Source: a virus. Taken from it: a stretch of 64,000 bases of DNA. A program made the position numbers and the translations under genes. Each line of letters opens with the position of its first letter. The stretch's first letter is position 1. The notes below the pieces were generated by a model. It had not been told where the DNA came from. It was given only the letters and a program-made list of their open reading frames with translations, and did no database searches. This document shows positions 2,707 through 62,845 of the stretch, piece after piece. The stretch lies in IMG/VR virus record IMGVR_UViG_3300035099_000047, positions 108,228 to 172,227 of that record; one strand, written 5' to 3'.

Positions 2707-2766
2707 TACCACCAACTCCAATCCTGAACTCTCCACCGTTCCAACCATCTTTTCCAAACCATTTCA

Positions 2767-3864: not shown

Positions 3865-4188
3865 ATTGCCTCAGGACCTCCTCCCCTTTTTCCGTAGTTT
3901 GATAAACCTCATTATCAGGACTACCGATCACCAGCAAGGAACCAGAAAGGTCTGGAGGCTCTCTACCAGCCCAAGGTAAATACGTAGTGTACCCTCTCAA
4001 CAATTCCCTGAACGCTTGGCTATCTCTAAAGGTGTCCTGTGTTCCCCCATCCTTTTGTATGTTTCTTGCATTTCCGCGGCACTGCAACCGCCCAGAGCGG
4101 CCTGCAATAAGCGCATTTGAAACGGAATCCATTCATCTTGCGGTTCATCTTCACAAAGTCGTTCAACGGCTTTTTCAAAGATACCCAT
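3851..4188 (-). pseudogene. Frameshifted VYQTTEKG-family gene with FE-type tag
   Basis: One frame (ATG 4188 down to a stop at 3997) encodes the tag and first half (MGIFEKAVERLCEDE, then AALGGC). A second frame carries the C-terminal half, ending in D-N-E-V-Y-Q-T-T-E-K-G and LRQYGYL at 3851. The halves join if one base is added near the run of five G at about 4044-4048 (minus strand ATGGGGGAA). This is a real one-base deletion, an assembly error in a homopolymer, or a programmed -1 event. The 14-nt overlaps with both neighbours (4175-4188 and 3851-3864) are intact, which speaks for a recent or artefactual shift. Confidence 0.65.
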
Positions 4189-4489
4189 ATTGCTTCAGAA
4201 TTTCCATCCCTTTTTCTGTGGTTTGATAAATATGTCTCTTACCCTTCACGCCTCCAAATCTAGTCATCCATCCTTTGCCAGCAGGGTGCCAGTCCCCTAA
4301 CAAATACAAATAGTTGTTCACACTCCACAAGCTCTTCCATTCTCCAGCAGCCTTATCCAAGTCATTCCAAAAGCAGCCTTTTTCAGCCGTTTTCAACAAA
4401 GCTAATGCAAGTGGAGACGGTTTTCTAACCCTTTGGGCTTCCACCAATTGGTGAACCACTTGCTCAAACCCACCTGCGTTCACGCTCAT
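4175..4489 (-). CDS. Small winged-helix-like protein (VYQTTEKG family), tagged
   Basis: This 104-residue paralogue begins MSVNAGGFEQVVHQLVEAQ (tag with L-V-E). It continues through T-A-E-K-G-C and a short L-Y-L-L-G strand and ends H-I-Y-Q-T-T-E-K-G with L-K-Q-Y. Its ATG 4489 overlaps the stop of the next gene by 26 nt, and its own stop lies 14 nt inside the next tagged gene. DNA binding is inferred only from the wing-like C-terminus. Confidence 0.75.
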   Translation of the reverse strand: MSVNAGGFEQVVHQLVEAQRVRKPSPLALALLKTAEKGCFWNDLDKAAGEWKSLWSVNNYLYLLGDWHPAGKGWMTRFGGVKGKRHIYQTTEKGMEILKQYGYL

Positions 4490-4760
4490 ACCTTTTCAAC
4501 GCTTCCAAACCTCTTTTGGTCGTTTGGAAAATCCGCCCTTCATGGTGACCAAAACGCACTATCCAACCAAACATCTCAAAGATTCCGATCCACTCCCCCA
4601 CGCGGGCTTGCTTAGGGATAAGGCGCAAATCCTGGCTAAGGCAACCCCCAACGCAAGCCCTTAACACTTTGATTCCATTTTCATCCAAATCCCGACGGAA
4701 AAATTCTTCTTCATCTGCATAAAAACGCATTTCACAAAGTCGGCCAACTTGATGATTCAC
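4464..4760 (-). CDS. Small winged-helix-like protein (VYQTTEKG family), GTG start
   Basis: This 98-residue paralogue has V-G-G-C in place of L-K-G-C and ends R-I-F-Q-T-T-K-R-G with A-L-K-R-Y-E. Its N-terminus NHQVGRLCE resembles AVERLCE of the neighbour, but the F-E part of the tag is missing. An ATG at 4773 with an out-of-frame M-E-E-F lies just upstream, so the tag may have been disrupted. GTG 4760 has GGAAG about 8 nt before it. Confidence 0.65.
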   Translation of the reverse strand: MNHQVGRLCEMRFYADEEEFFRRDLDENGIKVLRACVGGCLSQDLRLIPKQARVGEWIGIFEMFGWIVRFGHHEGRIFQTTKRGLEALKRYERERRWV

Positions 4761-4916
4761 TGAATTCTTCCATTTCCGGTTGAGACAAACCTTGCAAAGC
4801 TACTTTTAATAGCACCACAACATCACTGGACATGAAAGTTGCTTTGTCACCACTGCGGAAGTATACTTCGTGCAAATGATCAATGGCTTGCTCACCTACC
4901 CGAGCTTATTCTCCCA
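4732..4916 (-). pseudogene. Decaying copy of a VYQTTEKG-family gene (N-terminal half)
   Basis: From ATG 4916 the frame reads M-G-E, then TAA at 4908-4906, then on without further stops: GEQAIDHLHEVY (a tag remnant with L-H-E), a helix ending V-A-L-Q-G-L, and a stop at 4732. It matches the first half of the paralogues and has lost the wing half. The in-frame stop and the overlap with the next gene mark it as a relic. Confidence 0.55.
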
Positions 4917-4934
4917 TCCGCTATTCATACCTTC

Positions 4935-5123
4935 TCAAGGCTTCCAAGCCTTGGGAGTTGGGACCACCTTCGGTTTAGGAGGGTTGAACGGCCGGGGCTT
5001 CCCCGGCTTAGTAGGAGGCTGATAAGGCCTGCGCACCGGGACTCTCTTGGGGGGAGCTTTTGGAGGGGCGATTATAGGCTCTTCACTTAACAATTGCAAC
5101 ACAGCGCGTTCAAAACTGTTCAT
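4935..5123 (-). CDS. Tagged small Pro/Lys-rich protein; possible chimera of a VYQTTEKG-family gene
   Basis: ATG 5123 gives MNSFERAVLQLLSEEP (tag with L-S-E) followed by about 45 residues rich in Pro and Lys. Such a basic, unstructured protein would suit DNA condensation or a packaged internal protein. Just after its end, in another frame, the DNA still encodes QGLEALRRYE then TAG (4921), the typical C-terminus of the paralogue family. The gene therefore seems built on the remains of a family member, with the frame lost near 4945. The start overlaps the upstream stop by 14 nt. Confidence 0.65.
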   Translation of the reverse strand: MNSFERAVLQLLSEEPIIAPPKAPPKRVPVRRPYQPPTKPGKPRPFNPPKPKVVPTPKAWKP

Positions 5124-7173: not shown

Positions 7174-8613
7174 TTACACTAAGGTCCCAACAGCGTAGAA
7201 CCTGTTGTTGATGACTTTTTGTGCTGAACGTGTCAAAAGTCCACGGCGGCTCACAAAGTCATCCAACGTGATGGTGGGCGTGCTGATCAATCCCTGATAC
7301 ACAGCATGCACATAGCCAGTATCCAGGAAGTTGCCTCCCTTGCCACCCATCAGCCACTCATTGGTTGGATACGCCGAATCCTTGTAAACCTCCCAATCTC
7401 CAAGGGTTCCAACCTTCCTAATACCTGCCACCCCACTCACAGGCGGACTCTTAACAAACGCAGGCACCAAGGTCTCGACGATGTTGGCCACATTCATGCC
7501 CACCACCAACCAGGAACCTTGCATCCGCTGAGTCTGTTGGAAAATCGTGTTCGACGTTTCAGTAAAAGCGTCGATCAAGATTTCCTTGTGGTCCTTATAG
7601 CTGACACCAACCGGCGGAGTCGGATCAAACGTCACTGGGCTGGCTGCATTGTATGCAATAGCCCGCAGGTGCCGAATGATCTTTTCGTTGATCTCCTGGC
7701 TGATACGATTGGTGGCCAGCGTGACCAACTCCGTTTCGGCCACAATGCCGTGGACAGCCAGCAGATCCTGTTCGGCTTCAAGGCTCCACCTGAACCTTAG
7801 TTTATTCGGCCTAGTGACTACCGGGCTGGAGGTCAGCTGGATCTCCAATTCCGGAATCAAGTCACTTGCCTCCATGTCATACTCATAGGTGGCTGTAACA
7901 GCGTCGCTATCACTATGACCTGCCGTGAATACCACAGCGTAAACACCTGTGGCATAGTTGACAGTATTGGTGTAAGTGGCATCTGGTGTGCCTACATTAC
8001 CAATCAAATTCCCGTTGCCATCATCCGTGATGTGATAGGTTCCATCGGTGATATCCACTGTGCCTGGCCTTACTGGGTAATAACTCAGTGTACCCTTAAT
8101 TTTGTCGGTGCTAGTAACACCCAGAGCCTCATTCTCCACCACCTCATCAGTGTAGTGGTAACTGCGCTCCGGGCCAGCCTGGGCATCATAGATCTTAGTG
8201 CCCTTGGTGAGTGTACCCTTAGTACGGCCAGCCACGGCGTCCATGTAAAAGACTAGGCCGGTCGGGGCAGGCAGGGGCTGCACGCTGACCAAATCGGCAG
8301 CCACCAGGTTAGCAAACACCATGCGGATGATGGGGAACACGTATTTTTCATACGTACCCACTTGCAAGGTGCGGGTGGCTTCATCCAATCGGTCATAGTA
8401 CCGCTTGGCATTTTCCAACAGAGTGGCCACCAATGCCCGACGATACGGGTCCTCAATACCTTCCATGAAGTTGATGGAGCCTTCCTTGCCCCAATGACGC
8501 AGCCGATTGGCGGGCATATTGCCCCAGCTCTCGGCCAACACCTGTCCTCGATTCAACATGTCCTCCCAAGTTTCGTACATCGAGGACTCTTCAATTGCAT
8601 GTCGATTACCCAT
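7174..8613 (-). CDS. Major capsid protein, T4 gp23-like
   Basis: This 479-residue protein forms the head shell. The N-terminal third contains E-D-P-Y-R-R-A-L-V-A-T-L-L-E-N and V-F-P-I-I-R-M-V-F-A-N-L, then P-A-P-T-G-L-V-F-Y-M-D-A, the pattern typical of gp23-type capsid proteins. A variable insertion with beta-rich repeats follows (about residues 150-240). It sits directly downstream of the prohead protease, as expected. ATG 8613 has GGAG 9 nt upstream. The longer frame starts at a TTG (8664) that lies inside a hairpin and has no ribosome site. The N-terminus is likely trimmed during maturation. Confidence 0.9.
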   Translation of the reverse strand: MGNRHAIEESSMYETWEDMLNRGQVLAESWGNMPANRLRHWGKEGSINFMEGIEDPYRRALVATLLENAKRYYDRLDEATRTLQVGTYEKYVFPIIRMVFANLVAADLVSVQPLPAPTGLVFYMDAVAGRTKGTLTKGTKIYDAQAGPERSYHYTDEVVENEALGVTSTDKIKGTLSYYPVRPGTVDITDGTYHITDDGNGNLIGNVGTPDATYTNTVNYATGVYAVVFTAGHSDSDAVTATYEYDMEASDLIPELEIQLTSSPVVTRPNKLRFRWSLEAEQDLLAVHGIVAETELVTLATNRISQEINEKIIRHLRAIAYNAASPVTFDPTPPVGVSYKDHKEILIDAFTETSNTIFQQTQRMQGSWLVVGMNVANIVETLVPAFVKSPPVSGVAGIRKVGTLGDWEVYKDSAYPTNEWLMGGKGGNFLDTGYVHAVYQGLISTPTITLDDFVSRRGLLTRSAQKVINNRFYAVGTLV

Positions 8614-8652
8614 GACTAAGATCTCCAACGAACGGTGCAGTTGATACCATGA

Positions 8653-8677
8653 GAGTTCGGTCAACGCAACCGAACCC
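8653..8677 (-). promoter_or_regulatory. Leader hairpin before the major capsid gene
   Basis: Between the protease stop (8696) and ATG 8613 the minus strand reads GGGTTCGGT, a 7-nt loop, then ACCGAACTC: a 9-bp stem with one G-T pair. The unusually long 82-nt gap and this structure suggest an untranslated leader that could stabilise the capsid mRNA or set its translation level. Confidence 0.5.
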
Positions 8678-8695: not shown

Positions 8696-10258
8696 TTACT
8701 TGACTTTTCTAACCAGGCTCTCCATCAAATTGGTCGGCTTGGCAACACCCGCACGGGCTGGTCTCGCTGAGGAGCCTCTGGCTTCAGTCAGCGGGGGCAG
8801 GTCGGAGGGGTAGTCCTTGCGACCACTCATAATCGGCTGGATGAAACCTTCAACCAGCTGTTTGACTTGCTTAACCGTATGGCACTCACTCAATTGTTTC
8901 TCAATGGGCTTGAGAGCAGGGGCGTGGTTCATTAACGACTCCACGTATTGGGCCACCTGTTCACCTCGGTATCGCTTTACAGTGGCTTCTAACAGCTTCA
9001 AGCTGGCCTCAGCCCGCTTAAAAGCTTCAGCCAATTGACCCCTGAGCTGTTTAATAGTGCGCTCGGCCATTCGCTTGTTGGCCCTGCTCTTGGTCACCAG
9101 TGTCTCACCCAACTGAATGGCCACGTGATACCTTTCCTGCAGTGATCGGTCGCGGCGGTAGGCGCGCTCCATCACCCGAGCAGCTGCATCATCAGTTGGG
9201 GTGATGTCTTCCTTTTTCTCTTTTTCCTTTTTGGCTTTTTCCTCAGCCGCAATGCATTCCTCAGCTTCACGCATCCGGCGAATAGCTCGTGTGATTTCTT
9301 CTCCACGATTGGTCAGCTGACCCCGCAAGTGGGCCACATCCGAACTAAACTCACTTTCGGTAATGGAGCCCAACCCGGCCAACGTGTCATTGACCTTTTG
9401 AGCGTGCTCCAATAGCCCTTCCAATGTGATGTCCTTACCTCCCAGGTATTGACCTGAACTCTCCACAACCACTCGGGCCCGCGCAGTGCGGTCCGAAGAC
9501 TCTTTCAATTGAACCGGTGTAGTCATTGTCTTGTTCTCCAAAATGGGTACCAGAAATATCCTCGATCCGTTGTTGGTTTGTAGGCTTTCCACAGGGCGAG
9601 TTGTTGCTCCCATTACGCTTGGGATGTAAACGTGATCAAACGTGTCTAACACATAGTCGCTAGCCTCTACGATTTCGTCTCCGTTCTCGTTACGAGTGCT
9701 ACCAGAACCTCGGCTACTCACCGCAACAGGCACTCCAACGTCAAAATACTCCCTCAAAATTTGACCAGCTGGAGTATTGAAAATCAGATGGGTCACATAA
9801 ATCTTACCATCCTTGCGTTGAACATCTTCTACCAAGTGGCTTAGCCCCAAGTTGTTATGTCCGTGCAACTTGGTGTTGCCACTTTCAGGGTGCTCCAACT
9901 CCCCCAACACACTACGTTCCCGCAACCTGCGACGAAAGGTTCCATCCTCAGACAACACCCGATCCCACAAGGTTGAGGGATAAATGCGGCCATTCTGATT
10001 CTTGAGATTTTCCACTTGGCCTGGACCCGTCACCCGCAGCCGTTTGTTATGGCTCAATAGCTCTTGCAGGATCTGATCCTTGCTACCCCGCCAGTGTTCA
10101 ATCAGCTGTTCATTTTTCTCCTGCTCCAACAGCCGATTAAATTCCTCCCAACGGGGCATCAACACACTTTCCTTCAAACCCTCCGAAGTGACCCACTCCT
10201 TTTGCCACTGGTCTGGGGGTACTGTCATTGTTTCTATTAGCAATTTTCGTTCAGCCAT
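8696..10258 (-). CDS. Prohead protease (T4 gp21-like, family S77) fused to a scaffold-like coiled-coil region
   Basis: Residues about 75-230 match gp21-type maturation proteases: N-G-R-I-Y-P, then L-G-E-L-E-H-P with likely catalytic His123, then G-V-P-V-A-V-S-S-R-G-S-G with likely catalytic Ser171 or Ser172. T4 gp21 is about 212 residues. This protein has 520, with an N-terminal extension of about 70 residues and a C-terminal part rich in Lys/Glu/Arg predicted as coiled coil (about 300-500). That part is a good candidate scaffold, making this a protease-scaffold fusion. The family cuts after [L/I]-x-E, a motif common in the tagged proteins of this window. ATG 10258. Confidence 0.88.
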   Translation of the reverse strand: MAERKLLIETMTVPPDQWQKEWVTSEGLKESVLMPRWEEFNRLLEQEKNEQLIEHWRGSKDQILQELLSHNKRLRVTGPGQVENLKNQNGRIYPSTLWDRVLSEDGTFRRRLRERSVLGELEHPESGNTKLHGHNNLGLSHLVEDVQRKDGKIYVTHLIFNTPAGQILREYFDVGVPVAVSSRGSGSTRNENGDEIVEASDYVLDTFDHVYIPSVMGATTRPVESLQTNNGSRIFLVPILENKTMTTPVQLKESSDRTARARVVVESSGQYLGGKDITLEGLLEHAQKVNDTLAGLGSITESEFSSDVAHLRGQLTNRGEEITRAIRRMREAEECIAAEEKAKKEKEKKEDITPTDDAAARVMERAYRRDRSLQERYHVAIQLGETLVTKSRANKRMAERTIKQLRGQLAEAFKRAEASLKLLEATVKRYRGEQVAQYVESLMNHAPALKPIEKQLSECHTVKQVKQLVEGFIQPIMSGRKDYPSDLPPLTEARGSSARPARAGVAKPTNLMESLVRKVK

Positions 10259-13173: not shown

Positions 13174-13563
13174 TTAGTCCTCTTCATCATCAAAGTAACC
13201 AGGTCGGTCCTTAGCCCAAGCCTCAAATGCTTCCCAAGCAGATTGCATTTCTGCTCTGAATTGTTCTTCTAACATAGCCACCATCTCCTCTGGTTTCAAC
13301 GAATCACTATATTCTGGATTGGTCCAATGTTCAAAGGAACTCTTCAGGCGCTCAAATACAATAAGAGACAGGCTCTCCTTTTCCATTGGACCACGAGGGT
13401 TCAAGCTGTTGTCAGGTCTCCCAAGGTGAACCCTCTTGTATTGAGGAGGCGGATGACCAAACTGCTTATAAAAATTATGAAAATGCTTGTAACGAGGATC
13501 ATCAGGATCCATAAACTTTGCTTCTGCTACTATCTTATTTACAGCCTGTTCAAACCGGTCCAT
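13174..13563 (-). CDS. Tagged hypothetical protein (about 129 residues)
   Basis: ATG 13563 overlaps the upstream TGA and gives MDRFEQAVNKIVAEAKF, a tag with V-A-E. The body is helical and charged (RYKHFHNFYKQFG, MEKESLSLIVFERLKSSFEHW) and ends DRPGYFDDEED. No family recognised; a candidate internal head protein. Confidence 0.65.
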   Translation of the reverse strand: MDRFEQAVNKIVAEAKFMDPDDPRYKHFHNFYKQFGHPPPQYKRVHLGRPDNSLNPRGPMEKESLSLIVFERLKSSFEHWTNPEYSDSLKPEEMVAMLEEQFRAEMQSAWEAFEAWAKDRPGYFDDEED

Positions 13564-14981
13564 CACCCAATCTCCAACAGGCGATCAATCAACTTATTGG
13601 CCTCGACCTCTAATGATTCCATTCCCCGCCTGCGCCGAAAGTATGCTGGCACACCTGGACCTTCAGGCTCCTCTTCCTCCATGCCTTCCGGTTCTTCAGG
13701 TTCCTCTCCACCTCCGGGCTCTTCCTCTTCACCTTCCTCAGGCTCTTCTGGTCCGTACTCACCCCAATCCTCTTCGCCCTCTTCGGGCTCTTCCTCACCC
13801 TCTTCAGGCGCAGGGATCTCAGCCCCGAACTCCTCACCTTCTTCGCCTTCTTCCCCCTCTTCACCAGGAGGTGGACCTTGACCGGGCACACTTACCAATT
13901 GACCCCCACCCCCAGGCAGACCGGTAGCCGGATTGATGCCTTGCATACCACCACCGCTCATGCCTCTTCCTCCACCGGCCCCGCCTGCAGCAGCCTGGGG
14001 TTCACCTGGGGATTGACCGGGCTGACCTGGCTGACCAGGCTGACCCGGTTGAGGCAGTCCCTCTGGCCCGTAGCCCGGTCCACCCGTACCCAACACATCA
14101 ATCTCTTGCTCCGTACTCAAAAACACCCAACAACCATCCTCAGGCCTTTGAATAACTTGGGCTCCAGGCATGATTTGACGAAAGCTGGCCAACAACCTCC
14201 CCGCTTTGTCTTCACCCATGCTGGGGTCAAAGAACACCAGAATGGCATCCAGATCTTGCTCAATTGACGCCGTCAAATAATAGTCCAACAAGTCCAACAC
14301 ATTGATACGCAATACCAAAGCGTTGAAGAACTCGTCCATAGATGGCCGGTACTTCAATGGTTGATTGTACGCCGCTGCCGTGGGATCGAGCAATCCAACC
14401 CCTTCTTGCATACGGGCTGTACCTTTTATCAGCCGGTCCACTAATTGTTCCACTGTAGGTGAAACACGGTTGATACGAGCAATCAAATAATCCAACGCTT
14501 GGTCAAAAGCTAGCCTCGAAGCTCGTGTCACATCGTCCAAAGCTATACCATACCATTTATGAATCGCCCTTTTAGCCTTTGCCCAATCCACTCCATAACT
14601 CTTTTCCCCAGTGAGCACAGCAACCTGTGCTTTCAAAGTCTCCAATTCTTCTGGATCCAATGCAACCCTTTTTTGCAAACTTTCTACTGGGCTACCACGC
14701 TCCACCGGTCGTGGAGGACTGGGATTAACTTGTTCTGGGGCTGGACGGGCTTCAGGCGGACGGCTTTCGTCTGGAGGGCTTTGCTTAGCTTGTTTAGCTT
14801 GCAACAGCTTTTCCTTGACCCGATGAGCCAAATCACTTTTCAAAAAGTCCTCAGCTGGTTGCAACCGACTCAACCGGTCCCGGCTCACAATAGCTGCTCG
14901 TTCCGGTCCCTCATCCCGCATGGGTGTGGGATCCGGTACCGGGGCCTCAGACAACAGGTGTTCGATGAGCTGGTTAATCAC
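13563..14981 (-). CDS. Acidic low-complexity head-core or scaffold-like protein, tag-like ends
   Basis: This 472-residue protein begins with a tag-like helix (MINQLIEHLLSEAP, L-I-E and L-S-E) and ends with another (LEVEANKLIDRLLEIG, L-L-E). Between them are a helical domain (about 110-270, including WAKAKRAIHKWYGIALDDV), a Pro-Gly-Gln linker (GQPGQPGQPGQ) and about 90 residues dominated by Glu and Gly. Such acidic, terminally tagged proteins would suit a prohead core. The start is GTG 14981 with AAGG nearby. The role is inferred. Confidence 0.65.
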   Translation of the reverse strand: MINQLIEHLLSEAPVPDPTPMRDEGPERAAIVSRDRLSRLQPAEDFLKSDLAHRVKEKLLQAKQAKQSPPDESRPPEARPAPEQVNPSPPRPVERGSPVESLQKRVALDPEELETLKAQVAVLTGEKSYGVDWAKAKRAIHKWYGIALDDVTRASRLAFDQALDYLIARINRVSPTVEQLVDRLIKGTARMQEGVGLLDPTAAAYNQPLKYRPSMDEFFNALVLRINVLDLLDYYLTASIEQDLDAILVFFDPSMGEDKAGRLLASFRQIMPGAQVIQRPEDGCWVFLSTEQEIDVLGTGGPGYGPEGLPQPGQPGQPGQPGQSPGEPQAAAGGAGGGRGMSGGGMQGINPATGLPGGGGQLVSVPGQGPPPGEEGEEGEEGEEFGAEIPAPEEGEEEPEEGEEDWGEYGPEEPEEGEEEEPGGGEEPEEPEGMEEEEPEGPGVPAYFRRRRGMESLEVEANKLIDRLLEIG

Positions 14982-15662: not shown

Positions 15663-15947
15663 CTAATCTGGAAAAGCCTTTTTCAACAAATCACGCTGGT
15701 GCTCTTTGGGCAACTCTCGGAAGAATTCCAAAGACTGATTTATGTAAGGGTTGGCCGATCGATATCTCCCTTTCATTACGATTTCCAAAACAAATGCTCT
15801 TTCATTCAAGGCCGAAGTTAAAGCACTAGAAGTACGGTCATAATAGGCCCAAACTCTTTTCAAAGACTCAACAACCCATTCTTCCCAACCCATGATAGGA
15901 TTGTTCCAAATGCTGAGATTTTCGACAGCTTCTTGAAACAAACCCAC
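15663..15947 (-). CDS. Tagged protein of the ELPxEHQ family
   Basis: GTG 15947 (GGGAG upstream) gives MGLFQEAVENLSIWN. A W-E-E-W-V-V-E-S-L-K-R-V-W helix follows, and the end is LEFFRELPKEHQRDLLKKAFPD. Four other genes in the window share this C-terminus (16629, 20193, 20534, 20856). All five are tagged, helical, near 100 residues, and of unknown role. The longer TTG start at 15962 is less likely. Confidence 0.65.
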   Translation of the reverse strand: MGLFQEAVENLSIWNNPIMGWEEWVVESLKRVWAYYDRTSSALTSALNERAFVLEIVMKGRYRSANPYINQSLEFFRELPKEHQRDLLKKAFPD

Positions 15948-15949
15948 CT

Positions 15950-16636
15950 TCACCACTCCCAAGCTTTGCGTTCTTCCTCCCTATCCAATATCTCTTCGCC
16001 CCACGCACGCCATATCTCATTGCCAACCAAGCTAGGCACCCGTCGACCTTCTACAGCAGCATAGTTGAACACCAACCCCTCCGTGTGAGGATTCACAGCA
16101 TAGTAAATCTCAATACGGGCATAATCTCCATCCACCACCTGGTCCAAAGTGCCTGCTACATCCGCTGGTATCTGAACATCCGCTTGCATACCCCGCTCTT
16201 CCCACCACACTCCATCTTCATCCCGGTATACATCTATCAAAAACTGATTTTCCAACTTGCCCAGATACCCACACACCAGCTGCTTAGGGTCTTGACCCTC
16301 CAACAACTCATCTACCAAAGCTTTTTCTCTTTGACCACCATCCACCAAACCATTCAAACGCTCCACCAAGTGGCGATACCTATCCACCAAGCTATCGGCC
16401 ACACTTGCGCCGTTGAAGAGCTTGGAGTATATTTGGTCTTGGCACTCGTGAATCCGCTTCAGCGTGCTGCAAAACAAATTGTTGCGAACGTAATCGTTGT
16501 TTGGCCTAATGAGTTGCTTTTCCACTGCAGCCTTCACTACAGCCTCATATACCTCCAAGTCCCGAGACAATTCAGGACGTGGACCCAACTGGGCCAATGC
16601 GTTGCGCCAAACAGGGAGTTGAACCGGTTCAGTCAT
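15950..16636 (-). CDS. Hypothetical 229-residue protein
   Basis: An untagged protein with a helical N-terminal half (LSRDLEVYEAVVKAAVEKQL, VDRYRHLVERLNGLVDGGQR) and a mixed C-terminal half (YARIEIYYAVNPHTEGLVF, VPSLVGNEIWRAWGEEILD). ATG 16636 has GGAG about 10 nt upstream and is preferred to TTG 16642. No family recognised. Confidence 0.6.
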   Translation of the reverse strand: MTEPVQLPVWRNALAQLGPRPELSRDLEVYEAVVKAAVEKQLIRPNNDYVRNNLFCSTLKRIHECQDQIYSKLFNGASVADSLVDRYRHLVERLNGLVDGGQREKALVDELLEGQDPKQLVCGYLGKLENQFLIDVYRDEDGVWWEERGMQADVQIPADVAGTLDQVVDGDYARIEIYYAVNPHTEGLVFNYAAVEGRRVPSLVGNEIWRAWGEEILDREEERKAWEW

Positions 16637-16949
16637 AATCAAACCACTCCGAAGGGATTGCCCTGTTCAATAACGAAACTTGGTGTCCTGGAGGCAACTC
16701 CCGGTAAAGTTGCAAAGCTTCCAAATCGGACGAAATTTTATCCATTTCCATCTTGGTAACCACATCATGAACCACTTTCCTAACTTTTTCAACTTTAGAA
16801 AGTTTATCTGATACGTGGTCCCAAGCATCTCCAACCATTATATCGTCAATGAGGCCCCAAACTTCTTGCAAAGCTCCAATCACTCGATCTTCCCAAAAAA
16901 ATTGTTGGGATTCCGCAAGCTGGTTTACACCTTGTTCAAAACTATTCAT
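16629..16949 (-). CDS. Tagged protein of the ELPxEHQ family
   Basis: ATG 16949 with GAGG upstream gives MNSFEQGVNQLAESQ (L-A-E). Then W-E-D-R-V-I-G-A-L-Q-E-V-W-G and the C-terminal signature LQLYRELPPGHQVSLLNRAIP. It shares the W-E-D-R helix with the copy at 20193-20531. Function unknown. Confidence 0.65.
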   Translation of the reverse strand: MNSFEQGVNQLAESQQFFWEDRVIGALQEVWGLIDDIMVGDAWDHVSDKLSKVEKVRKVVHDVVTKMEMDKISSDLEALQLYRELPPGHQVSLLNRAIPSEWFDYD

Positions 16950-16954
16950 ATTCC

Positions 16955-17266
16955 TCACTTGAACAATGGGCTCGCAGAAGCCCTGCGCACATGTTGCACT
17001 GCCCGCCTCAAATGATTTATCACTCGTTGACGTTCAAAGTCCCAAGCAGGCCCTACCTCTGGGTCTCGCATACGGCCAATCCGTTGTACCATCCCTTCAA
17101 TCTCATGCAACAATTCGTGAATATCATCCAACCTCGCTTCTTCAAGCGGTTGTCGAGCGCTAGGGCCCATCAGTTGCTCAACCAAATAGTGAATATCACT
17201 TGTTAATGCTAGCTTGGCCATACTTGGACCAAAACTTTCTGCTCCAAACAAAAACTGCTCCATCAT
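16955..17266 (-). CDS. Hypothetical protein with internal tag-like segment
   Basis: About 100 residues, helical throughout. The segment DIHYLVEQLMG (near residue 25) resembles the tag helix with L-V-E. If ATG 17221 (MAKLALTSDIHYLVEQ) is the true start, it would be near-terminal. From ATG 17266 the gene overlaps the end of the next gene by 71 nt in another frame. The C-terminus is basic (INHLRRAVQHVRRASAS). Confidence 0.55.
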   Translation of the reverse strand: MMEQFLFGAESFGPSMAKLALTSDIHYLVEQLMGPSARQPLEEARLDDIHELLHEIEGMVQRIGRMRDPEVGPAWDFERQRVINHLRRAVQHVRRASASPLFK

Positions 17267-19786: not shown

Positions 19787-20170
19787 TTAACTCACTAGCC
19801 GGAAGTTTGAACCTTTCAAATAAGCCCCACCCCTTGTGTCCAGGCGAAAATCCAACCAACGCCCTGGAGCCACATCATCAGGATGCAAATCTTCTATGGG
19901 AGCATGAAACTGTACAACAGCTCCGCCGTAACTTTGCTTGACGTGTTCAAAACTACTAGATGCATAAACACCATAACTGTCTGGAACACCTTCGGGAACT
20001 CTTAACTTCCCAGCCCTGACAATATCACAGGCGATTTCAGGCCTCGTAGCATGATAAAGAGTAATTGTACCATCTGGATTCAACTCACCCCCAGCAGACA
20101 AAAACTCCTCCAACCACGAAGGGTACCCGTCTTCCAACAACCAACGGGCTACCCAACTGAACCGGTCCAT
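19787..20170 (-). CDS. Tagged ADP-ribosyltransferase-fold protein (predicted)
   Basis: The tag is MDRFSWVARWLLEDG (L-L-E). After a short helix it reads T-I-T-L-Y-H-A-T-R-P-E-I-A-C-D-I-V-R-A-G, then G-V-Y-A-S-S-S-F-E-H-V-K-Q-S-Y-G and V-V-Q-F-H-A-P. The Y-H-A-T, A-x-x-I-x-x-x-G and G-V-Y-x-S elements in this order are typical of ADP-ribosyltransferase-like folds (H-Y type, as in KptA or PARP relatives). A third catalytic residue is not clear. T4 Alt is a packaged, injected ADP-ribosyltransferase, which makes the combination with a capsid-type tag suggestive. ATG 20170. Confidence 0.55.
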   Translation of the reverse strand: MDRFSWVARWLLEDGYPSWLEEFLSAGGELNPDGTITLYHATRPEIACDIVRAGKLRVPEGVPDSYGVYASSSFEHVKQSYGGAVVQFHAPIEDLHPDDVAPGRWLDFRLDTRGGAYLKGSNFRLVS

Positions 20171-20192
20171 AGTTCAACCCTCACCTTGCCGC

Positions 20193-20531
20193 TCAATACC
20201 AACCATCTGGGAATGCCTTTTTGAGCAGCGCTTGTTGGTGTTCCTTGGGTAATTCCCGAAAAAGTATCACAGCCCCTTGATCCTTAAATTTTGGATCACC
20301 TTCTGCAAACCCAATTTGCACGAACCACAATATCTTATTCCGAACCCTTTCTGCAGTCACTGCTGGTCTTTGTCTCTTAATAGCATGCCAACCAGTCCCC
20401 CAGAGCTCGTAAACATACTTCCCGAGCTGGTGCAAATACTCAATCATCCGATCTTCCCAAAACCGCTCATCAGAATGGGTCTGTGAGTCTTCTGTTAGAT
20501 TACAAACAGCTTGTTCAAACAACCGACCCAT
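20193..20531 (-). CDS. Tagged protein of the ELPxEHQ family
   Basis: MGRLFEQAVCNLTEDS (L-T-E), a W-E-D-R-M-I-E-Y-L helix, and a C-terminus VILFRELPKEHQQALLKKAFP that nearly repeats the copy at 15663. About 112 residues, helical. It is the first of three adjacent family members (20193, 20534, 20856). Unknown function. Confidence 0.65.
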   Translation of the reverse strand: MGRLFEQAVCNLTEDSQTHSDERFWEDRMIEYLHQLGKYVYELWGTGWHAIKRQRPAVTAERVRNKILWFVQIGFAEGDPKFKDQGAVILFRELPKEHQQALLKKAFPDGWY

Positions 20532-20533
20532 TA

Positions 20534-20851
20534 CTAATATCCTTTAGGAAAGTATTTCCCAGGAAAAGCTTGTCTCAATAACTCATCTCTTTGTTCTCCT
20601 GGCAACTCTTCAAAGAACTCCAAGGCTTCCATATCCAAACCCCACCTTTTCAGCGTTTCATCATCCAAGTAACTCAACTCATACTCCACTTCCCATCGCA
20701 CATAGTCAGCATCTACTTCAATACCTTGATATTGGGCACTGTCATATACCTGATCCGCTATTTTGTCCCAAACATCGTGCAAAGCCTCTACCACCCGGTC
20801 AAGAAATGAATCCTCCATCAGTCGTTGAACAGATTTTTCAAATCTACTCAT
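20534..20851 (-). CDS. Tagged protein of the ELPxEHQ family
   Basis: MSRFEKSVQRLMEDS (L-M-E), then D-R-V-V-E-A-L-H-D-V-W-D-K and an acidic middle (VDADYVRWEVEYELSYL). The end is EFFEELPGEQRDELLRQAFP. ATG 20851. Divergence from the neighbours suggests old duplications. Confidence 0.65.
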   Translation of the reverse strand: MSRFEKSVQRLMEDSFLDRVVEALHDVWDKIADQVYDSAQYQGIEVDADYVRWEVEYELSYLDDETLKRWGLDMEALEFFEELPGEQRDELLRQAFPGKYFPKGY

Positions 20852-20855
20852 TTTA

Positions 20856-21140
20856 TCACCCAGGGAAAAGTCGGCACAAAATGTCCCACCTTTGCTCAGC
20901 AGGCAACTCCACGTAAAACTTCAATGCATTCCTATCTGGTACTATGGGAAACCACTCTGGTTCAGCATCTTCTCGAGCCAATTTGTCCACGAACCTTTTC
21001 AACATATCAAATTCCATTGGAGTCTGTGGCTCTAACATTATCTGGGACCTCAACTGTTTCAATACTCGGTCCACCCTTCCAAGCCAATCAAAAGGCTGCT
21101 CCTTTGCCATACTCTCAACCAACTTCTCGAACTCCCCCAA
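20856..21140 (-). CDS. Tagged protein of the ELPxEHQ family, TTG start
   Basis: TTG 21140, with GGGAGG 8 nt upstream, gives MGEFEKLVESMAKEQ. This start lines up with the paralogues and falls right after the upstream stop (21142). ATG 21164 is in frame but would put eight extra residues before the tag. The C-terminus reads LKFYVELPAEQRWDILCRLFP. Confidence 0.65.
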   Translation of the reverse strand: MGEFEKLVESMAKEQPFDWLGRVDRVLKQLRSQIMLEPQTPMEFDMLKRFVDKLAREDAEPEWFPIVPDRNALKFYVELPAEQRWDILCRLFPG

Positions 21141-21141
21141 C

Positions 21142-21336
21142 TCACCGTCCTCCCAAATCCACATTACCCCCCTGGCTCTTGCCCACTTTACACAGTCCTA
21201 GCATCTCCAACACTTCCGCTTGTGTCCGTCCAGTCTGTTCGACCAATCGGTCCACTAACTCCAACGGGGCACTCCAATGGGTTGCCTTGTTGTAAACCCT
21301 CTCGCCATAGATTTCAGTGCCCTCTTGCGGTTTCAT
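21142..21336 (-). CDS. Hypothetical 64-residue protein
   Basis: A short protein with an internal helix PLELVDRLVEQTG (L-V-E) that resembles the tag but lies mid-protein, followed by Q-A-E-V-L-E-M-L-G-L-C. ATG 21336 has GGAG 8 nt before it and overlaps the upstream TGA. It could be a small helical adaptor; no family recognised. Confidence 0.55.
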   Translation of the reverse strand: MKPQEGTEIYGERVYNKATHWSAPLELVDRLVEQTGRTQAEVLEMLGLCKVGKSQGGNVDLGGR

Positions 21337-22007
21337 TCCTCGCCCTCCAATAAACGGTTGACTATTTGCTCAAATTCGCTTTCACTATAAGGCGGGTAAG
21401 CCTGACCTGTGACTTGCTTGAAACGTGTAACAAATGAATGAGGATCGTAACTCGGATCAAACCCCAAACCCAATACTTCCATAGCAGCTTGCTTCTCAAG
21501 CCCCCACAACAAGTGCAACTTTTGTAGCAACTTGGCCTTTTCCTTTGAGGTCAAGGGAATGCTACGAGGTCCAACTTTTCTCAATTGTTTAACAGGCAAT
21601 GTACCTTCATGAGAAACGGAAACCACTATGGGATAATCCGGATGAACTGTCCTCAATCTCTCAATGCTACCCCGAAGCCCATTGATGATCCTTCCTAAAT
21701 CTTGATACAATGGGTGTTCTAGGGGTTCTGGGTTCCAAAAACTAATCACAATCATCCCTCCACCCAAACCCAATCGGCCATACAAAACCGGAGTATCCCC
21801 ACGGCGAGTATAGTCCTCTAAATTCAATTCATCCGGATATTGGTTTATCAAGTATCCATGATTCCGATCACCAGGGCCAGTGAACAACTTGCGAGTTCGG
21901 GTGTCATAAGCAAACGTGACCGAGCGAGAGTCTTCAAGCAACCAGTCCGGTGTTATCCATTGCTCACGGTAGACTTTGAGCGGATCCCATTCCATTTCAT
22001 CACCCAT
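21333..22007 (-). CDS. Hypothetical 224-residue protein with C-terminal FE tag
   Basis: The N-terminal part is beta-rich (VTFAYDTRTRKLFTGPGD, TPVLYGRLGLGGGMIVISFW), followed by helices and Y-P-I-V-V-S-V-S-H-E-G. The last residues are SEFEQIVNRLLEGEE, an almost perfect copy of the tag (F-E-x-x-V-x-x-L-L-E) at the C-terminus instead of the N-terminus. ATG 22007. Family unknown. Confidence 0.65.
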   Translation of the reverse strand: MGDEMEWDPLKVYREQWITPDWLLEDSRSVTFAYDTRTRKLFTGPGDRNHGYLINQYPDELNLEDYTRRGDTPVLYGRLGLGGGMIVISFWNPEPLEHPLYQDLGRIINGLRGSIERLRTVHPDYPIVVSVSHEGTLPVKQLRKVGPRSIPLTSKEKAKLLQKLHLLWGLEKQAAMEVLGLGFDPSYDPHSFVTRFKQVTGQAYPPYSESEFEQIVNRLLEGEE

Positions 22008-22269
22008 TCAACAACCGCTCCACTGCCTGCTCAAACTTTCCACTCTCCTTGACTCTAGCAACTTCATTGGCATTCTTTTCCAGCCAATCCAAGAATTGCT
22101 CCTGGTCATATTGACAGCCAGTTGCCACTGCACGGACAAATTCCTGCATAGGCATCTTTTTAGGCACATATTCCTTCGGGATGCCGTTGATCTCAATGAT
22201 CAACCCCGTGCGACCCAAAGCAAAAGGCTTGGGTCGGCTTTCATGCATTCGACGTTTGGTACTGGCCAT
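22000..22269 (-). CDS. Hypothetical protein with C-terminal FE tag
   Basis: ATG 22269 gives a basic N-terminus (MASTKRRMHESRPKPFALG). A middle segment reads QEFVRAVATGCQYDQEQFLD. The protein ends GKFEQAVERLLNG, the shared tag sequence at the C-terminus, here without the final Glu. It overlaps the glycosyltransferase upstream by 29 nt. The longer frame to 22332 is less likely. Confidence 0.6.
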   Translation of the reverse strand: MASTKRRMHESRPKPFALGRTGLIIEINGIPKEYVPKKMPMQEFVRAVATGCQYDQEQFLDWLEKNANEVARVKESGKFEQAVERLLNG

Positions 22270-23071
22270 TGTAAACCCTTTCAAATAACTTTTTGTGCTC
22301 TTCAACCCAATAGTTTTCATTCCATTGAGCAACGCTCAACGCATAATTTTCACGCCGAATATACAAACCTCTCAGCTGCAAAACCAAATCGTCAAAGTCA
22401 TTTGGCTCATAAGCTATCACACCAGGGTGGGCTGCAAAGTCTTGTTGCAATCCCACTCCGCGACCGATCATTACCGGCACCCCACTCGCCAATCCTTCCA
22501 TTACCGATAACGGGCCAGCTTCATGAGTTGACGTAATTAGTACCACATCACTCTTGCGCATCATAGCATACAGTTCAAACGGAGTCAAATTACCCCCGCT
22601 TTCAAGCACCTCAACCCACTTGTATTGCCGCAAGCGGCTCACCCACTCATACCGCTTGCGGTTGTCATAACCAGGGGGGTGACGATGAGGCCACAACACT
22701 CGCAACGGCCGTGGGCTACAAAGCTGATGAACCGGGGGAAATATCAAACTGACTCTATTGTATCCCACCAACTGACCCACCTGTTGATAATACTTGCTAC
22801 TAAGGGTAACACAATGATCCACAGCTCGGGCTATGCGGTTGTAACGCTCTCCATGTTTACCCGGTAGGCTGTGGGTCATTAGAGCCACTATTGGTCTAGG
22901 TACCCTACCACAATGCTCGTATTCCAAATATGGTACAAAATAGGTGAGATCATATTTGGGTTGAGACCAACTTTTGGTGTTGTAATAAACCTCCACTCCA
23001 GGTATGTTCAGCAACAAGTCCGCAAGCCTTCGGCAAACCCAGCTTGACTCTGCAAACACTAGCACCTTCAT
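22241..23071 (-). CDS. Glycosyltransferase, GT-B fold (family 4-like)
   Basis: This 276-residue protein starts M-K-V-L-V-F-A-E-S-S-W. It carries the family 4 signature E-A-G-P-L-S-V-M-E-G-L-A-S-G-V-P-V near residue 200, with the E-x7-E pattern that holds the donor phosphate and sugar. It is shorter than typical (about 350-400) and its N-terminal domain looks reduced. It is the last gene of the sugar cluster in transcription order. ATG 23071. Confidence 0.85.
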   Translation of the reverse strand: MKVLVFAESSWVCRRLADLLLNIPGVEVYYNTKSWSQPKYDLTYFVPYLEYEHCGRVPRPIVALMTHSLPGKHGERYNRIARAVDHCVTLSSKYYQQVGQLVGYNRVSLIFPPVHQLCSPRPLRVLWPHRHPPGYDNRKRYEWVSRLRQYKWVEVLESGGNLTPFELYAMMRKSDVVLITSTHEAGPLSVMEGLASGVPVMIGRGVGLQQDFAAHPGVIAYEPNDFDDLVLQLRGLYIRRENYALSVAQWNENYWVEEHKKLFERVYNGQYQTSNA

Positions 23072-45608: not shown

Positions 45609-45645
45609 GTTTAACCCACCTAGCTGGCCGTTTAACAAGCGATAG

Positions 45646-60117: not shown

Positions 60118-62598
60118 TCACTCCATCGCTGGTAACAATTCATTCACTGCGCTACTACGAGTATTTTGATCCACAGACTCGGCCAGCAACTTCACCTGGC
60201 TCAAGAACTCTGGACCCAACGCTGTGATCAAAGTTTCCTCTTCAGTGGGAGTCAGTGGTTCCCCTTCCATACCAGGCACCCCAGGTACAGGCTCCCCTTC
60301 TTCAGGTGGCGGAGCACCTTGTTTGGGTAATTGCAATGGAGCGTTTTGGTCAATAAACTGATCCAGAAAGTTTTTACTCAATCCGCCAAACTTCCAGAGC
60401 AGCCAACTGACCCAACGCTTTTTATCCAATCCCTCCACATCCGTAAGCACCCGACTGATGGAGTCGATGGCCCGACTGCGAAGGTCAAACACTTCCAGGC
60501 GTTCCATCTCGTCCAGGTACGAGATGGGAGCCATGCAGACCTCGAACTCATTGGCAGGGTCCGTTGGATCAATACCCTTGAGAGCCATGTGGACTTGACA
60601 AAGGCGAACTAGCCCTCGTGTTGCAGCTTTCTGGCCAGCTTTTCCGGATCTGGCCCAACGGATGTCTTGACGCCCTAGAGTTTTGCCGTTATCAATGACC
60701 GCTCCACCTTCTTCTTTCATACCGAAATAGCTGGGAGGTGCTCTAAGGGCAGCAAAAAGCCTCTTGACCAAAAGTTCATAGTCATGAATTTCGCCGATAT
60801 TTGCACTTCCAGCTTGTTTTTCAATACGACTGTTGGATCCCTCTTTAGTAGGCCAGAAAAAATCTTGGTCTACTGAATTGCCTGTAAACACTTCAGATAC
60901 CTCGCCGCCCCGTTCACAACGCACAGCAAAGTTGTGATAACCGACCACGCTTAAACAATGAACTTCAGCAACCACCCCCAAGTATTCAACAGAAACCACC
61001 TTATGATCCACTCCGGCAGGCCATGATTCAAAACTGTCACCAGGTTGCAACCCAATAGCTTTCCGTTTAACCCCACCCTTCAAAATCCATTCATGGTTAG
61101 ATGTGCAATCATAGAATGATCCATCATCCAAAGTCACCCGGTACACTGGGCAACCAGTACCAACCACTCCCAAGTGAGTAGCTTCACCCTCCACAATGCA
61201 ATTGTTCCGTTTGTCAAACGAGTACACAGAAAATGACCTGTTTGTACCGTACTCATCCAATATCTGTTGCAAGGTCAAATTGCGACCATCTACCAATGGA
61301 ACGATGGTATTTGGAGTGAGACACCAGGGATTGTAATCCACTCTCAACCGTCCTTGATCCGGCTGGTACAACACCTGCTTTTTGAGCGCCCTGCGCCACA
61401 TGCGCAGGATTTCCACGGATTCGCTGGCTGATGCTTCACCACAATCCACGTAGAATATGAAACGGTCAGGGGCCATCTTGAGCCTGTACATGATAATGCT
61501 GTCTTCAACCATTTGCAGCTTACGCCACAACCTACGTGCTGGCCTGCAAAGGGAATCCCCATAAGTCTGATCCGGCCGTAACCTCCCAATAGCCCGAAAG
61601 AAATGAATGAAATCCCATGGATTGTACAGTATACTTTCACTGCGCATTTCCAATGTACTGTCAATAGTAAAACCTCGCATTCGGCCTTTCTCTTCAACTC
61701 GAAACACCCGCTGGGGCTCATAGTATTCCAATGCAATTATCCCTTCACCCCGACGGTACCAATTCCTCAAAAAGCAATCTCCATACTTGGCTGCTTCACG
61801 AATGATACTAGCTACTCGATCCTCAATCTCCAACTTGTCAAACAACTTGGTCAACAGTTTTACCACGTCTTGATTCTCACTGGAAATCCAAACAATTCGG
61901 CCACTGATCATGTCTGGCTGGGTGCAATCTTCTGCCATGGCATCCAACACCGCACTCACTAAATCATCGAAATCCATTTCTGTATTCTTCACAAACACAC
62001 CAGCAGACAAAGCAAAATTGTGATATTTGTCCACGGTAATGTTGTAAATATCTGCAAGGCCAGCTGGTTCCACAGAAATGACCTTGTGATTAGTTGGTTG
62101 CAAGTATCCGGACCCAATTGGCATCAAGCTGTCACCTGCTTGCAGCTGATCTGCTCGTCTGTATTCCCCTTCTTTGAACAAAAATGGATGATTTGGAGTG
62201 CAACGGATTGACTCTCCATTATCCAAAGTAACCTTGACAATGGGTCGGTTGATTCCGGTTTTGTATAACCTTATTACCTTGCCTGGCACCACTTTCCGTG
62301 TTTTCAAATCATAAGAATAAACCCAAATATCTCCATCCAAATCAAACAATTCTCCTATGGTTTTTTCCGTCCCGTTCAACAGGGAAATTTTGGTGTCTTC
62401 GGTCAGGCAATAATCCCTATAAGCCTCCAGCCTTTCCCTAGTGATTTGAACCTTATTCCTGTAAAACTCCCAAATACTAGGGGTGCTCGGGCTTTCCCTT
62501 TCAAACCTCGCGGGATCAATTCCATACCGCTCTGGCCGTCTGGGGGCAGCAAACACCTTGCTAAGCAAACCGACTGGATTCAATTGCAAGAAGTCCAT
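60118..62598 (-). CDS. Portal protein, T4 gp20-like, with two mini-inteins
   Basis: The portal ring through which DNA enters and leaves the head. The exteins sum to 535 residues, close to T4 gp20 (524). Landmarks are F-Y-R-N-K, Y-G-D-C-F-L-R-N-W-Y, Y-N-P-W-D-F-I-H-F-F-R and F-F-W-P-T-K-E-G. Two inteins split it at residues 64-205 and 426-574, counted from ATG 62598. ATG 62598 has GGGAG 9 nt upstream and is preferred to TTG 62607. The C-terminal tail is Pro/Glu-rich. It lies far from the capsid genes (about 52 kb), unlike in T4. Confidence 0.9.
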   Translation of the reverse strand: MDFLQLNPVGLLSKVFAAPRRPERYGIDPARFERESPSTPSIWEFYRNKVQITRERLEAYRDYCLTEDTKISLLNGTEKTIGELFDLDGDIWVYSYDLKTRKVVPGKVIRLYKTGINRPIVKVTLDNGESIRCTPNHPFLFKEGEYRRADQLQAGDSLMPIGSGYLQPTNHKVISVEPAGLADIYNITVDKYHNFALSAGVFVKNTEMDFDDLVSAVLDAMAEDCTQPDMISGRIVWISSENQDVVKLLTKLFDKLEIEDRVASIIREAAKYGDCFLRNWYRRGEGIIALEYYEPQRVFRVEEKGRMRGFTIDSTLEMRSESILYNPWDFIHFFRAIGRLRPDQTYGDSLCRPARRLWRKLQMVEDSIIMYRLKMAPDRFIFYVDCGEASASESVEILRMWRRALKKQVLYQPDQGRLRVDYNPWCLTPNTIVPLVDGRNLTLQQILDEYGTNRSFSVYSFDKRNNCIVEGEATHLGVVGTGCPVYRVTLDDGSFYDCTSNHEWILKGGVKRKAIGLQPGDSFESWPAGVDHKVVSVEYLGVVAEVHCLSVVGYHNFAVRCERGGEVSEVFTGNSVDQDFFWPTKEGSNSRIEKQAGSANIGEIHDYELLVKRLFAALRAPPSYFGMKEEGGAVIDNGKTLGRQDIRWARSGKAGQKAATRGLVRLCQVHMALKGIDPTDPANEFEVCMAPISYLDEMERLEVFDLRSRAIDSISRVLTDVEGLDKKRWVSWLLWKFGGLSKNFLDQFIDQNAPLQLPKQGAPPPEEGEPVPGVPGMEGEPLTPTEEETLITALGPEFLSQVKLLAESVDQNTRSSAVNELLPAME
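60877..61323 (-). mobile_element. Mini-intein 2 in the portal gene
   Basis: 149 residues from Cys (CLTPNTIVPLVDGRNLTLQQ, block A) through block B-like C-T-S-N-H-E-W, V-D-H-K-V-V-S-V-E-Y, and the C-terminal end Y-H-N-F-A-V-R-C-E-R-G-G-E, closing G-N then Ser of the extein. The usual His before the last Asn is Gly here. No endonuclease domain. The C-extein begins S-V-D-Q-D-F-F-W, a conserved portal stretch. Confidence 0.88.
61984..62409 (-). mobile_element. Mini-intein 1 in the portal gene
   Basis: 142 residues from Cys (CLTEDTKISLLNGTEKTIGE) through T-P-N-H-P-F-L-F (block B), N-H-K-V-I-S-V-E and the end K-Y-H-N-F-A-L-S-A-G-V-F-V-K-N, then Thr of the extein. It is clearly related to the endonuclease-bearing intein at 1-484 and has probably lost its endonuclease. 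The insertion point is in the N-terminal part of the portal. Confidence 0.9.
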
Positions 62599-62599
62599 A

Positions 62600-62845
62600 T
62601 CACTCAACTCCCACTAGCAAACCGTTCAGTTTGCCCCCCAGATACTTACTCAAAGCAATCAAGTGATCCAAAGTCAAATCGGACTCTGTTTGTTGCAATT
62701 CACAAGGGTCATCGCAGTGTTTACCCAAACAGCCAATTCTTTGCTTGCGAGGGTAGTCAGATTCACATTCTCCACTCTCACCTATGCAATCCCGGCGACA
62801 ACGATTGCAAACAAAAGAATGACGCAACTTGTACTCTACCTTCAT
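62600..62845 (-). CDS. Small Cys-rich zinc-ribbon-like protein
   Basis: ATG 62845 overlaps the upstream stop (ATGA). The 81-residue protein holds C-N-R-C-R-R-D-C, G-E-C, G-C-L-G-K-H-C and P-C, enough for one or two zinc sites, then a helical end (LDHLIALSKYLGGKLNGLL). Zinc-binding proteins flank the portal start on this side too. The role is unknown. Confidence 0.6.
   Translation of the reverse strand: MKVEYKLRHSFVCNRCRRDCIGESGECESDYPRKQRIGCLGKHCDDPCELQQTESDLTLDHLIALSKYLGGKLNGLLVGVE

What the first reader, a model, noticed from the sequence alone, without database searches (positions are those of the whole stretch)
19787..20170. A tagged, predicted ADP-ribosyltransferase: possible counterpart of T4 Alt
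The protein combines the tag (MDRFSWVARWLLEDG) with Y-H-A-T, A-x-x-I-x-x-x-G and G-V-Y-x-S elements of ADP-ribosyltransferase folds. In T4, Alt is packaged, cut and injected to modify host RNA polymerase. A similar strategy here would be convergent, since the sequence is far shorter (127 residues).
Basis: partly seen in the sequence, partly recalled or inferred. Interest (0 to 1): 0.72.

Follow-up and report, generated by a model that had tools for sequence, protein, structure and literature searches.

The report
Tagged mini-ADP-ribosyltransferase-like protein of T4-like phage
A small gene of a T4-like phage encodes a protein with the fold of an enzyme that attaches a piece of NAD to other molecules, behind a short, weakly conserved tag that probably loads it into the virus head so that it is injected with the DNA; such injected enzymes are known, but this compact, PARP-like, tagged version differs from T4's Alt.

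Summary
No curated model matches it directly, but a chain of searches found relatives: 43% identity to a protein encoded between portal and major head protein in another phage, and domains inside giant phage proteins, some also carrying GNAT, 2H-phosphoesterase or a second ADP-ribosyltransferase (ART) domain. A profile built without the query scores it at 43 bits (best decoy 7). AlphaFold2 gives a confident model (pLDDT 85). The solved structures it resembles are mainly ARTs of the H-Y-E (diphtheria/PARP) clade. His40 is invariant and Tyr69 is in place, but the acidic residue at the start of strand 5, present in 13 of 16 relatives, is Trp here, so activity is not assured.

T4 Alt belongs to the other (R-S-E) clade, so this is an analogue, not a homologue. 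The phage has gp20-, gp21- and gp23-like genes, and about 30 ORFs carry a terminal F-E-x-x-V-x-x-L-x-E tag ending in a gp21-type L-x-E site. The query's tag is a degenerate copy (shuffle p = 0.007). Packaging and injection are therefore likely but inferred. Verdict: a new variant of a known kind, head-packaged phage ARTs.

The parts
19787..20170 (-). gene of the finding: 127-aa protein with N-terminal tag and ART-like domain
   Evidence: single copy in the record
20179..20186 (-). ribosome-binding-like AGGTGAGG, 8 nt before the ATG
   Evidence: upstream sequence read directly
20132..20170 (-). degenerate capsid-targeting-like tag, residues 1-13 (MDRFSWVARWLLE), predicted helix; possible gp21-type cut after L-L-E13
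   Evidence: L/I-x-E rule of gp21 from PMC9026906
19793..20083 (-). ART-like domain, residues 30-126
20051..20053 (-). His40, strand 1, invariant in 16 of 16 relatives; expected NAD-binding His
19964..19966 (-). Tyr69, strand 2, Y or F in all 16; expected nicotinamide-stacking residue
19856..19858 (-). Trp105 at the start of strand 5, where 13 of 16 relatives have E or D; Asp107 (19850-19852) is the nearest acid
20193..20531 (-). neighbour with N-terminal tag (FEQAVCNLTED)
20534..20851 (-). neighbour with N-terminal tag (FEKSVQRLMED)
20856..21164 (-). neighbour with N-terminal tag (FEKLVESMAKE)
21333..22007 (-). neighbour with the tag at its C-terminus (FEQIVNRLLEGEE)
22000..22332 (-). neighbour with the tag at its C-terminus (FEQAVERLLNG)
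8696..10258 (-). prohead protease, gp21-like (Peptidase_S77); LIE at residues 7-9
7174..8664 (-). major capsid protein, gp23-like
60118..62607 (-). portal protein, gp20-like, interrupted by an intein-like splicing domain

Best explanation
The gene makes a minimal ART-fold effector of the H-Y-E (diphtheria toxin/PARP) side of the superfamily, carried as head cargo by a T4-like phage. Proposed steps: (1) the N-terminal helix F4...L11-x-E13 attaches the protein to the prohead core, as the capsid-targeting sequence (CTS) of T4 internal proteins does [inferred]; (2) the phage's gp21-type protease cuts after L-L-E13, freeing a protein of about 114 residues that stays in the head [inferred]; (3) it enters the cell with the DNA [inferred]; (4) its ART domain binds NAD with His40 and Tyr69 [fold shown by prediction, binding inferred] and mono-ADP-ribosylates a host macromolecule early in infection [inferred]. 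Since the usual acid at the start of strand 5 is Trp105, catalysis would have to use Asp107 or an acid of the substrate, as in mono-ADP-ribosylating PARPs. The target is unknown.
For: Fold and family: leave-query-out profile 43.2 bits against 7.0 for the best decoy. Closest relative L024 is 43% identical in a pairwise alignment. Model pLDDT 85.3, pTM 0.80; a second model, of the relative, has pLDDT 86.1. Better PDB matches are mainly ARTs: TreTu, RhsP2, exotoxin A and PARP10/2/1 for the query; exotoxin A, diphtheria toxin, cholix, TreTu and PARP10/12/14/15 for the relative. A viral model match is a mycobacteriophage protein named ADP-ribosyltransferase, E 5.5e-4. The relatives' profile weakly aligns with KptA structures, itself an ART-superfamily enzyme. 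Delivery: gp20/gp21/gp23-like genes; a tag pattern at N-termini of 22 minus-strand against 3 plus-strand ORFs, with [LI]xE in 28 of 33 tagged ORFs against 32 of 138 others; ORFs just upstream carry the tag at one end; the closest relative is encoded between portal and major head protein; other relatives sit in phage proteins of about 1,200-3,150 aa, one with GNAT and 2H domains and one with a second ART. Phage ARTs are reported to be often head-packaged (PMC9503650; PMC5512222).
Against: The query's tag is degenerate (p = 0.007, rank 45). The strand-5 acid is missing, so the domain could be inactive. Foldseek matches to solved structures are moderate (E 0.005 at best, TM about 0.5), and non-ART folds also appear in the lists. 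No Pfam ART model reaches the protein or the record. The TATAAATA motif of T4 late promoters is absent from the window. No virion, activity or target data exist.
Confidence: 0.6

Rival explanations
1. It is a packaged, injected but catalytically dead ART-fold protein that binds NAD, ADP-ribosylated targets or host ARTs (a decoy, sponge or inhibitor), like the inactive PARP9 and PARP13.
For: Trp105 stands where 13 of 16 relatives have E or D; PARP9 and PARP13 show that such domains can lose activity (PMC4695847).
Against: His40 and Tyr69, the NAD-contacting residues, are kept; mono-ADP-ribosylating PARPs lack the Glu and are active; Asp107 is close by in sequence.
Confidence: 0.2
2. It is an ART-fold enzyme made in the infected cell and never packaged; the tag resemblance is chance or decay.
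For: The tag scores weakly (p = 0.007). Stand-alone relatives in mycobacteriophages lie among tRNA genes beside a nuclease, not head genes.
Against: It sits at the end of a run of tagged ORFs; F4 and L-x-E13 fall at exactly the canonical positions; its closest relative is a portal-capsid gap gene.
Confidence: 0.2
3. It acts on RNA rather than protein: an RNA-ADP-ribosylating enzyme like RhsP2, or a KptA-like RNA repair enzyme. (This overlaps with the best explanation, which leaves the target open.)
For: RhsP2 is among the best structural matches; KptA is among the profile's few, non-significant sequence matches in the PDB (E 0.5) and 3 of 16 relatives weakly hit the KptA model; a relative is fused to a 2H domain of the 2'-5' RNA ligase superfamily.
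Against: All sequence matches to KptA are far below its cut-off; the domain is shorter than the KptA model (177 positions); TreTu, a protein-targeting ART (own knowledge), matches as well as RhsP2 does.
Confidence: 0.2
4. It is a direct homologue of T4 Alt (R-S-E clade, Alt/VIP2 family), reduced in size.
For: Same presumed life style: T4-like phage, N-terminal peptide with a gp21-type site.
Against: No R-S-E residues; H-Y arrangement; structural matches are mainly to H-Y-E enzymes; the ADPrib_exo_Tox model finds nothing in the record.
Confidence: 0.02

Closest known systems
ART domains of phage and plasmid polyvalent proteins (Tox-ART-HYD2 / HY-[EDQ] clade; PMC5512222, PMC9503650)
   Same: H in strand 1, Y in strand 2; relatives of the query occur inside giant phage proteins and next to GNAT, 2H and second ART domains; presumed injection.
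   Different: Stand-alone 127 aa with its own N-terminal tag; Trp at the usual acid position; not reached by the Pfam ART-PolyVal model.
T4 Alt, packaged and injected ART
   Same: T4-like phage with a gp21-type protease; N-terminal peptide with an L-x-E cut site; presumed early action.
   Different: Alt is an R-S-E (Alt/VIP2) enzyme and much larger; this is an H-Y type minimal domain. Analogy, not homology.
[quoted passage not shown]
   Same: Short N-terminal propeptide ending in L/I-x-E; small, variable cargo.
   Different: Different tag sequence (F-E-x-x-V-x-x-L-x-E); about 30 tagged ORFs; some tags at the C-terminus.
phrog_6170, mycobacteriophage family (Silverleaf member named ADP-ribosyltransferase in UniProt)
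   Same: Same domain family, shared LYHxT, YG and VV features.
   Different: No tag; gene lies among tRNA genes; 22% identity in the structural alignment.
TreTu and RhsP2 Rhs toxin domains
   Same: Minimal ART fold of about 112-143 residues, best or near-best structural matches.
   Different: Delivered as C-terminal toxin domains of Rhs proteins between bacteria; RhsP2 has an R-Y-E triad; 12-16% identity to the query.

Membership tests
ART superfamily, H-Y-[EDQ] clade | ART fold | tested here: met
   Models at pLDDT 85-86; Foldseek matches mainly ARTs; moderate scores
ART superfamily, H-Y-[EDQ] clade | His in strand 1 | tested here: met
   His40 in strand 35-42, invariant in 16 of 16
ART superfamily, H-Y-[EDQ] clade | Tyr in strand 2 | tested here: met
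   Tyr69 in strand 68-71; Y or F in relatives
ART superfamily, H-Y-[EDQ] clade | E, D or Q in strand 5 | tested here: inconclusive
   Trp105 where 13 of 16 have E/D; Asp107 lies in strand 105-110; geometry not examined
ART superfamily, H-Y-[EDQ] clade | NAD-dependent transfer | not testable with these tools
   needs an assay
Pfam ART-PolyVal (PF18760) | match above cut-off | tested here: not met
   no match at E <= 1 in the record
T4 Alt (Alt/VIP2, R-S-E clade) | R-S-E catalytic residues | tested here: not met
   His40 and Tyr69 instead; no PF03496 match
T4-type CTS-bearing internal head protein | short N-terminal peptide with L/I-x-E cleavage motif | tested here: met
   L11-L12-E13
T4-type CTS-bearing internal head protein | gp21-type protease in the same phage | tested here: met
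   Peptidase_S77, E 1.9e-9
T4-type CTS-bearing internal head protein | tag agrees with that of the phage's other tagged proteins | tested here: inconclusive
   rank 45 of 2,236 termini, p = 0.007; fails the strict pattern
T4-type CTS-bearing internal head protein | present and cleaved in the virion | not testable with these tools
   needs virion proteomics
KptA/Tpt1 RNA 2'-phosphotransferase | match to PF01885 above cut-off | tested here: not met
   no match in the record; only weak hits (best E 0.021) in 3 relatives

The most novel reading that the evidence does not exclude
A T4-like phage uses one short cleavable address tag, placed at either end, to load some thirty different small proteins into its head as an injected arsenal, and one of these is a roughly 114-residue PARP-like mono-ADP-ribosyltransferase that takes the place of Alt: an independent origin of head-injected ADP-ribosylation in the T4 superfamily.
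Probability: 0.4. Interest if true: 0.68.

Novelty: new variant of a known kind. Interest (0 to 1): 0.48.

Why it matters
If true, T4-like phages have acquired head-injected ADP-ribosylation at least twice with different ART clades, which would make the delivery route rather than the particular enzyme the conserved idea. It also gives a very small ART domain to study, names a family of unknown function (phrog_6170 and relatives) as ART-like, and points to a set of about 30 tagged candidate injected proteins that a single virion mass-spectrometry experiment could test.

Tried and rejected
Direct matches to Pfam, NCBIfam, PHROGs and PDB sequences gave nothing usable. A single-sequence scan of viral contigs found nothing. 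Of the weak tblastn hits, Erwinia phage Bue1 (a VWA protein), the Tistrella RHS protein and Microbacterium phage Pumpernickel were rejected as chance. Stenotrophomonas phage Moby's PARP domain aligns the H and Y motifs in register but only at E 7, so it was not used. Alignment A1 was too diverse to scan with, and A7 found no relative in genome contigs. Direct descent from Alt was rejected on the residue pattern. No structured RNA was found near the gene, and the sigma-70 and terminator patterns are at about chance level.

Full report
What was checked. The ORF 19787-20170 on the minus strand is exactly as described. It encodes 127 residues, has AGGTGAGG 8 nt before its ATG, and has positive codon preference only in its own frame. 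It is present once in the 172,227-base virus record that holds the window. The motifs Y39-H-A-T42, A47-x-x-I50-x-x-x-G54 and G67-V-Y-x-S71 are read directly from the sequence.

The phage. The window carries a gp20-like portal gene (Portal_T4, E 2.9e-38, interrupted by an intein-splicing domain), a gp21-like protease (Peptidase_S77, E 1.9e-9) and a gp23-like major capsid protein (Gp23, E 1.8e-46). The nearest capsid relatives in the phage collection are Bacillus phage SP-15 and Listeria phage LIS04 at about 34% identity, so this is a distant member of the T4 superfamily. The host is unknown.

Finding the family. The protein itself has no match in Pfam or NCBIfam, only chance-level ones in PHROGs and the PDB, and a direct scan of viral contigs found nothing. 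Weak tblastn hits were inspected one by one. A plasmid protein of Miniimonas (L011) aligned over the core and led, through L020 and further scans, to 10 viral contigs in addition to L020/L022 and to 8 loci in bacterial genomes; mycobacteriophage proteins of phrog_6170 belong too. The closest relative, in L024, is 43% identical in a pairwise alignment. As control, a profile built from 15 relatives without the query scores the query at 43.2 bits, against at most 7.0 bits for 1,117 other ORFs and 3,000 shuffles; leaving out L024 as well it is 36.6 bits.

Context of the relatives. In L024 the domain is the C-terminal part of a 303-aa protein encoded between a portal gene and a major head protein gene, after the terminase. 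In L022, L023, L026-L029 it lies inside proteins of about 1,200 to 3,150 residues, the architecture of polyvalent proteins (PMC5512222). L031 combines a GNAT, this domain and a 2H (2'-5' RNA ligase-like) domain; L032 combines an ADPrib_exo_Tox ART with it. Not all relatives fit a packaging context: the mycobacteriophage genes lie among tRNA genes, and several bacterial and plasmid copies are small stand-alone proteins.

Fold. AlphaFold2 on 16 aligned sequences gives mean pLDDT 85.3 and pTM 0.80. The best-scoring solved structures are the Rhs ART toxin domains TreTu and RhsP2 (E 0.024 to 0.066, probability 0.97-0.99), followed among others by exotoxin A and PARP10, PARP2, PARP1, PARP16 and PARP4. 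A separate model of the L024 domain (pLDDT 86.1), built on the same set of sequences, matches exotoxin A (E 0.005), diphtheria toxin, cholix, TreTu and PARP10/12/14/15. Other folds also appear (an AMPK sensor with probability 0.07, CNFy fragments, Agrobacterium 6b). No PDB match reaches E 0.001 and TM-scores are near 0.5, so the fold assignment rests on the consistency of the hits together with homology. In the viral library, three matches are below 0.001, one of them the phage Silverleaf protein named ADP-ribosyltransferase.

Active site. PMC9503650 divides ARTs into H-H-h, H-Y-[EDQ] and R-S-E clades; PMC5512222 gives H (strand 1), Y (strand 2) and D (strand 5) for the polyvalent ARTs and R-S-E for Alt. 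Here His40 (strand 35-42) is invariant and position 69 (strand 68-71) is Tyr in half and Phe in half of 16 sequences. The column at the start of strand 5 holds E or D in 13 of 16 but Trp105 in the query, a gap in L024 and Gly in L025; Asp107 lies in the same strand. Mono-ADP-ribosylating PARPs lack the Glu and use an acid of the substrate, while PARP9 and PARP13 are inactive (PMC4695847). So activity is plausible but not shown. No other ART of four Pfam families tested was found in the record.

The tag. A strict pattern F-[polar]-x(1,2)-[aliphatic]-x-[polar]-[LI]-x-[acidic or polar] occurs within the first residues of 22 minus-strand ORFs but only 3 plus-strand ORFs of the whole record, and at the C-termini of three. 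A position matrix ranks about 32 ORFs clearly above background, though its top ranks are its own training set. In 28 of 33 tagged ORFs an [LI]xE lies within residues 6-30, against 32 of 138 untagged minus-strand ORFs of 120 aa or more; the tag pattern itself favours this, so the comparison is not independent. In T4, gp21 cuts after L/I-x-E, and 10-residue N-terminal capsid-targeting sequences suffice to bring proteins into the head; for IPIII, residues 4 and 7 matter for targeting and 8 and 10 for processing (PMC9026906). The query keeps F4, L11-x-E13 and D14 but scores only 7.7 against about 15-32 for clear members (p = 0.007 by shuffling). It is therefore a degenerate tag whose credibility comes from position and neighbourhood: 20193-20531, 20534-20851 and 20856-21164 carry it at the N-terminus, 21333-22007 and 22000-22332 at the C-terminus.

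Judgement. ART fold: about 0.93. Head packaging and injection: about 0.65. Active transferase given the fold: about 0.65. Head-packaged phage ARTs are an established theme (about 44% of phage ARTs are in contexts suggesting packaging, PMC9503650), so the novelty is in the combination of a minimal H-Y type ART with a T4-like tag.

Noticed in passing
window 2767-63321 (- strand, scattered) and record 99827-106844, 4055-4962: About 32 ORFs carry a terminal F-E-x-x-V-x-x-L-x-E tag, mostly N-terminal; two have it at the C-terminus (21333-22007, 22000-22332), and 13563-14981 and 58245-60053 have diverged copies at both ends. It looks like a greatly expanded capsid-targeting sequence.
   Followed up: partly
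window 60118-62607 (-): The gp20-like portal gene carries an intein-splicing domain (PF14890, E 3.2e-24, residues 74-163).
   Followed up: no
window 43929-45113 (-): An IS605-type OrfB/TnpB gene lies beside tagged ORFs.
   Followed up: no
window 15663-15962, 16629-16958, 20193-20531, 20534-20851, 20856-21164 (-): A group of small tagged ORFs with similar C-termini (for example F-R-E-L-P-K-E-H-Q-x-x-L-L-K-K-A-F-P), apparently paralogues. The one tested (20534-20851) has no convincing relative in the phage collection.
   Followed up: partly
window 2353-2757, 3851-4132, 4175-4489, 4464-4760, 45120-45638 (-): Second apparent paralogue group with similar C-termini (T-T-E-K-G-x-E-x-L-x-x-Y), several of them tagged.
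   Followed up: no
window 8696-10258 (-): The protease ORF has LIE at residues 7-9 and LME near its C-terminus, reminiscent of the LIE-9 noted for T4 gp21 in PMC9026906.
   Followed up: no
L003:5178-8786: Stenotrophomonas phage Moby has a 1,202-aa protein with a PARP-like domain whose H and Y motifs align in register with the query, but only at E 7.
   Followed up: partly
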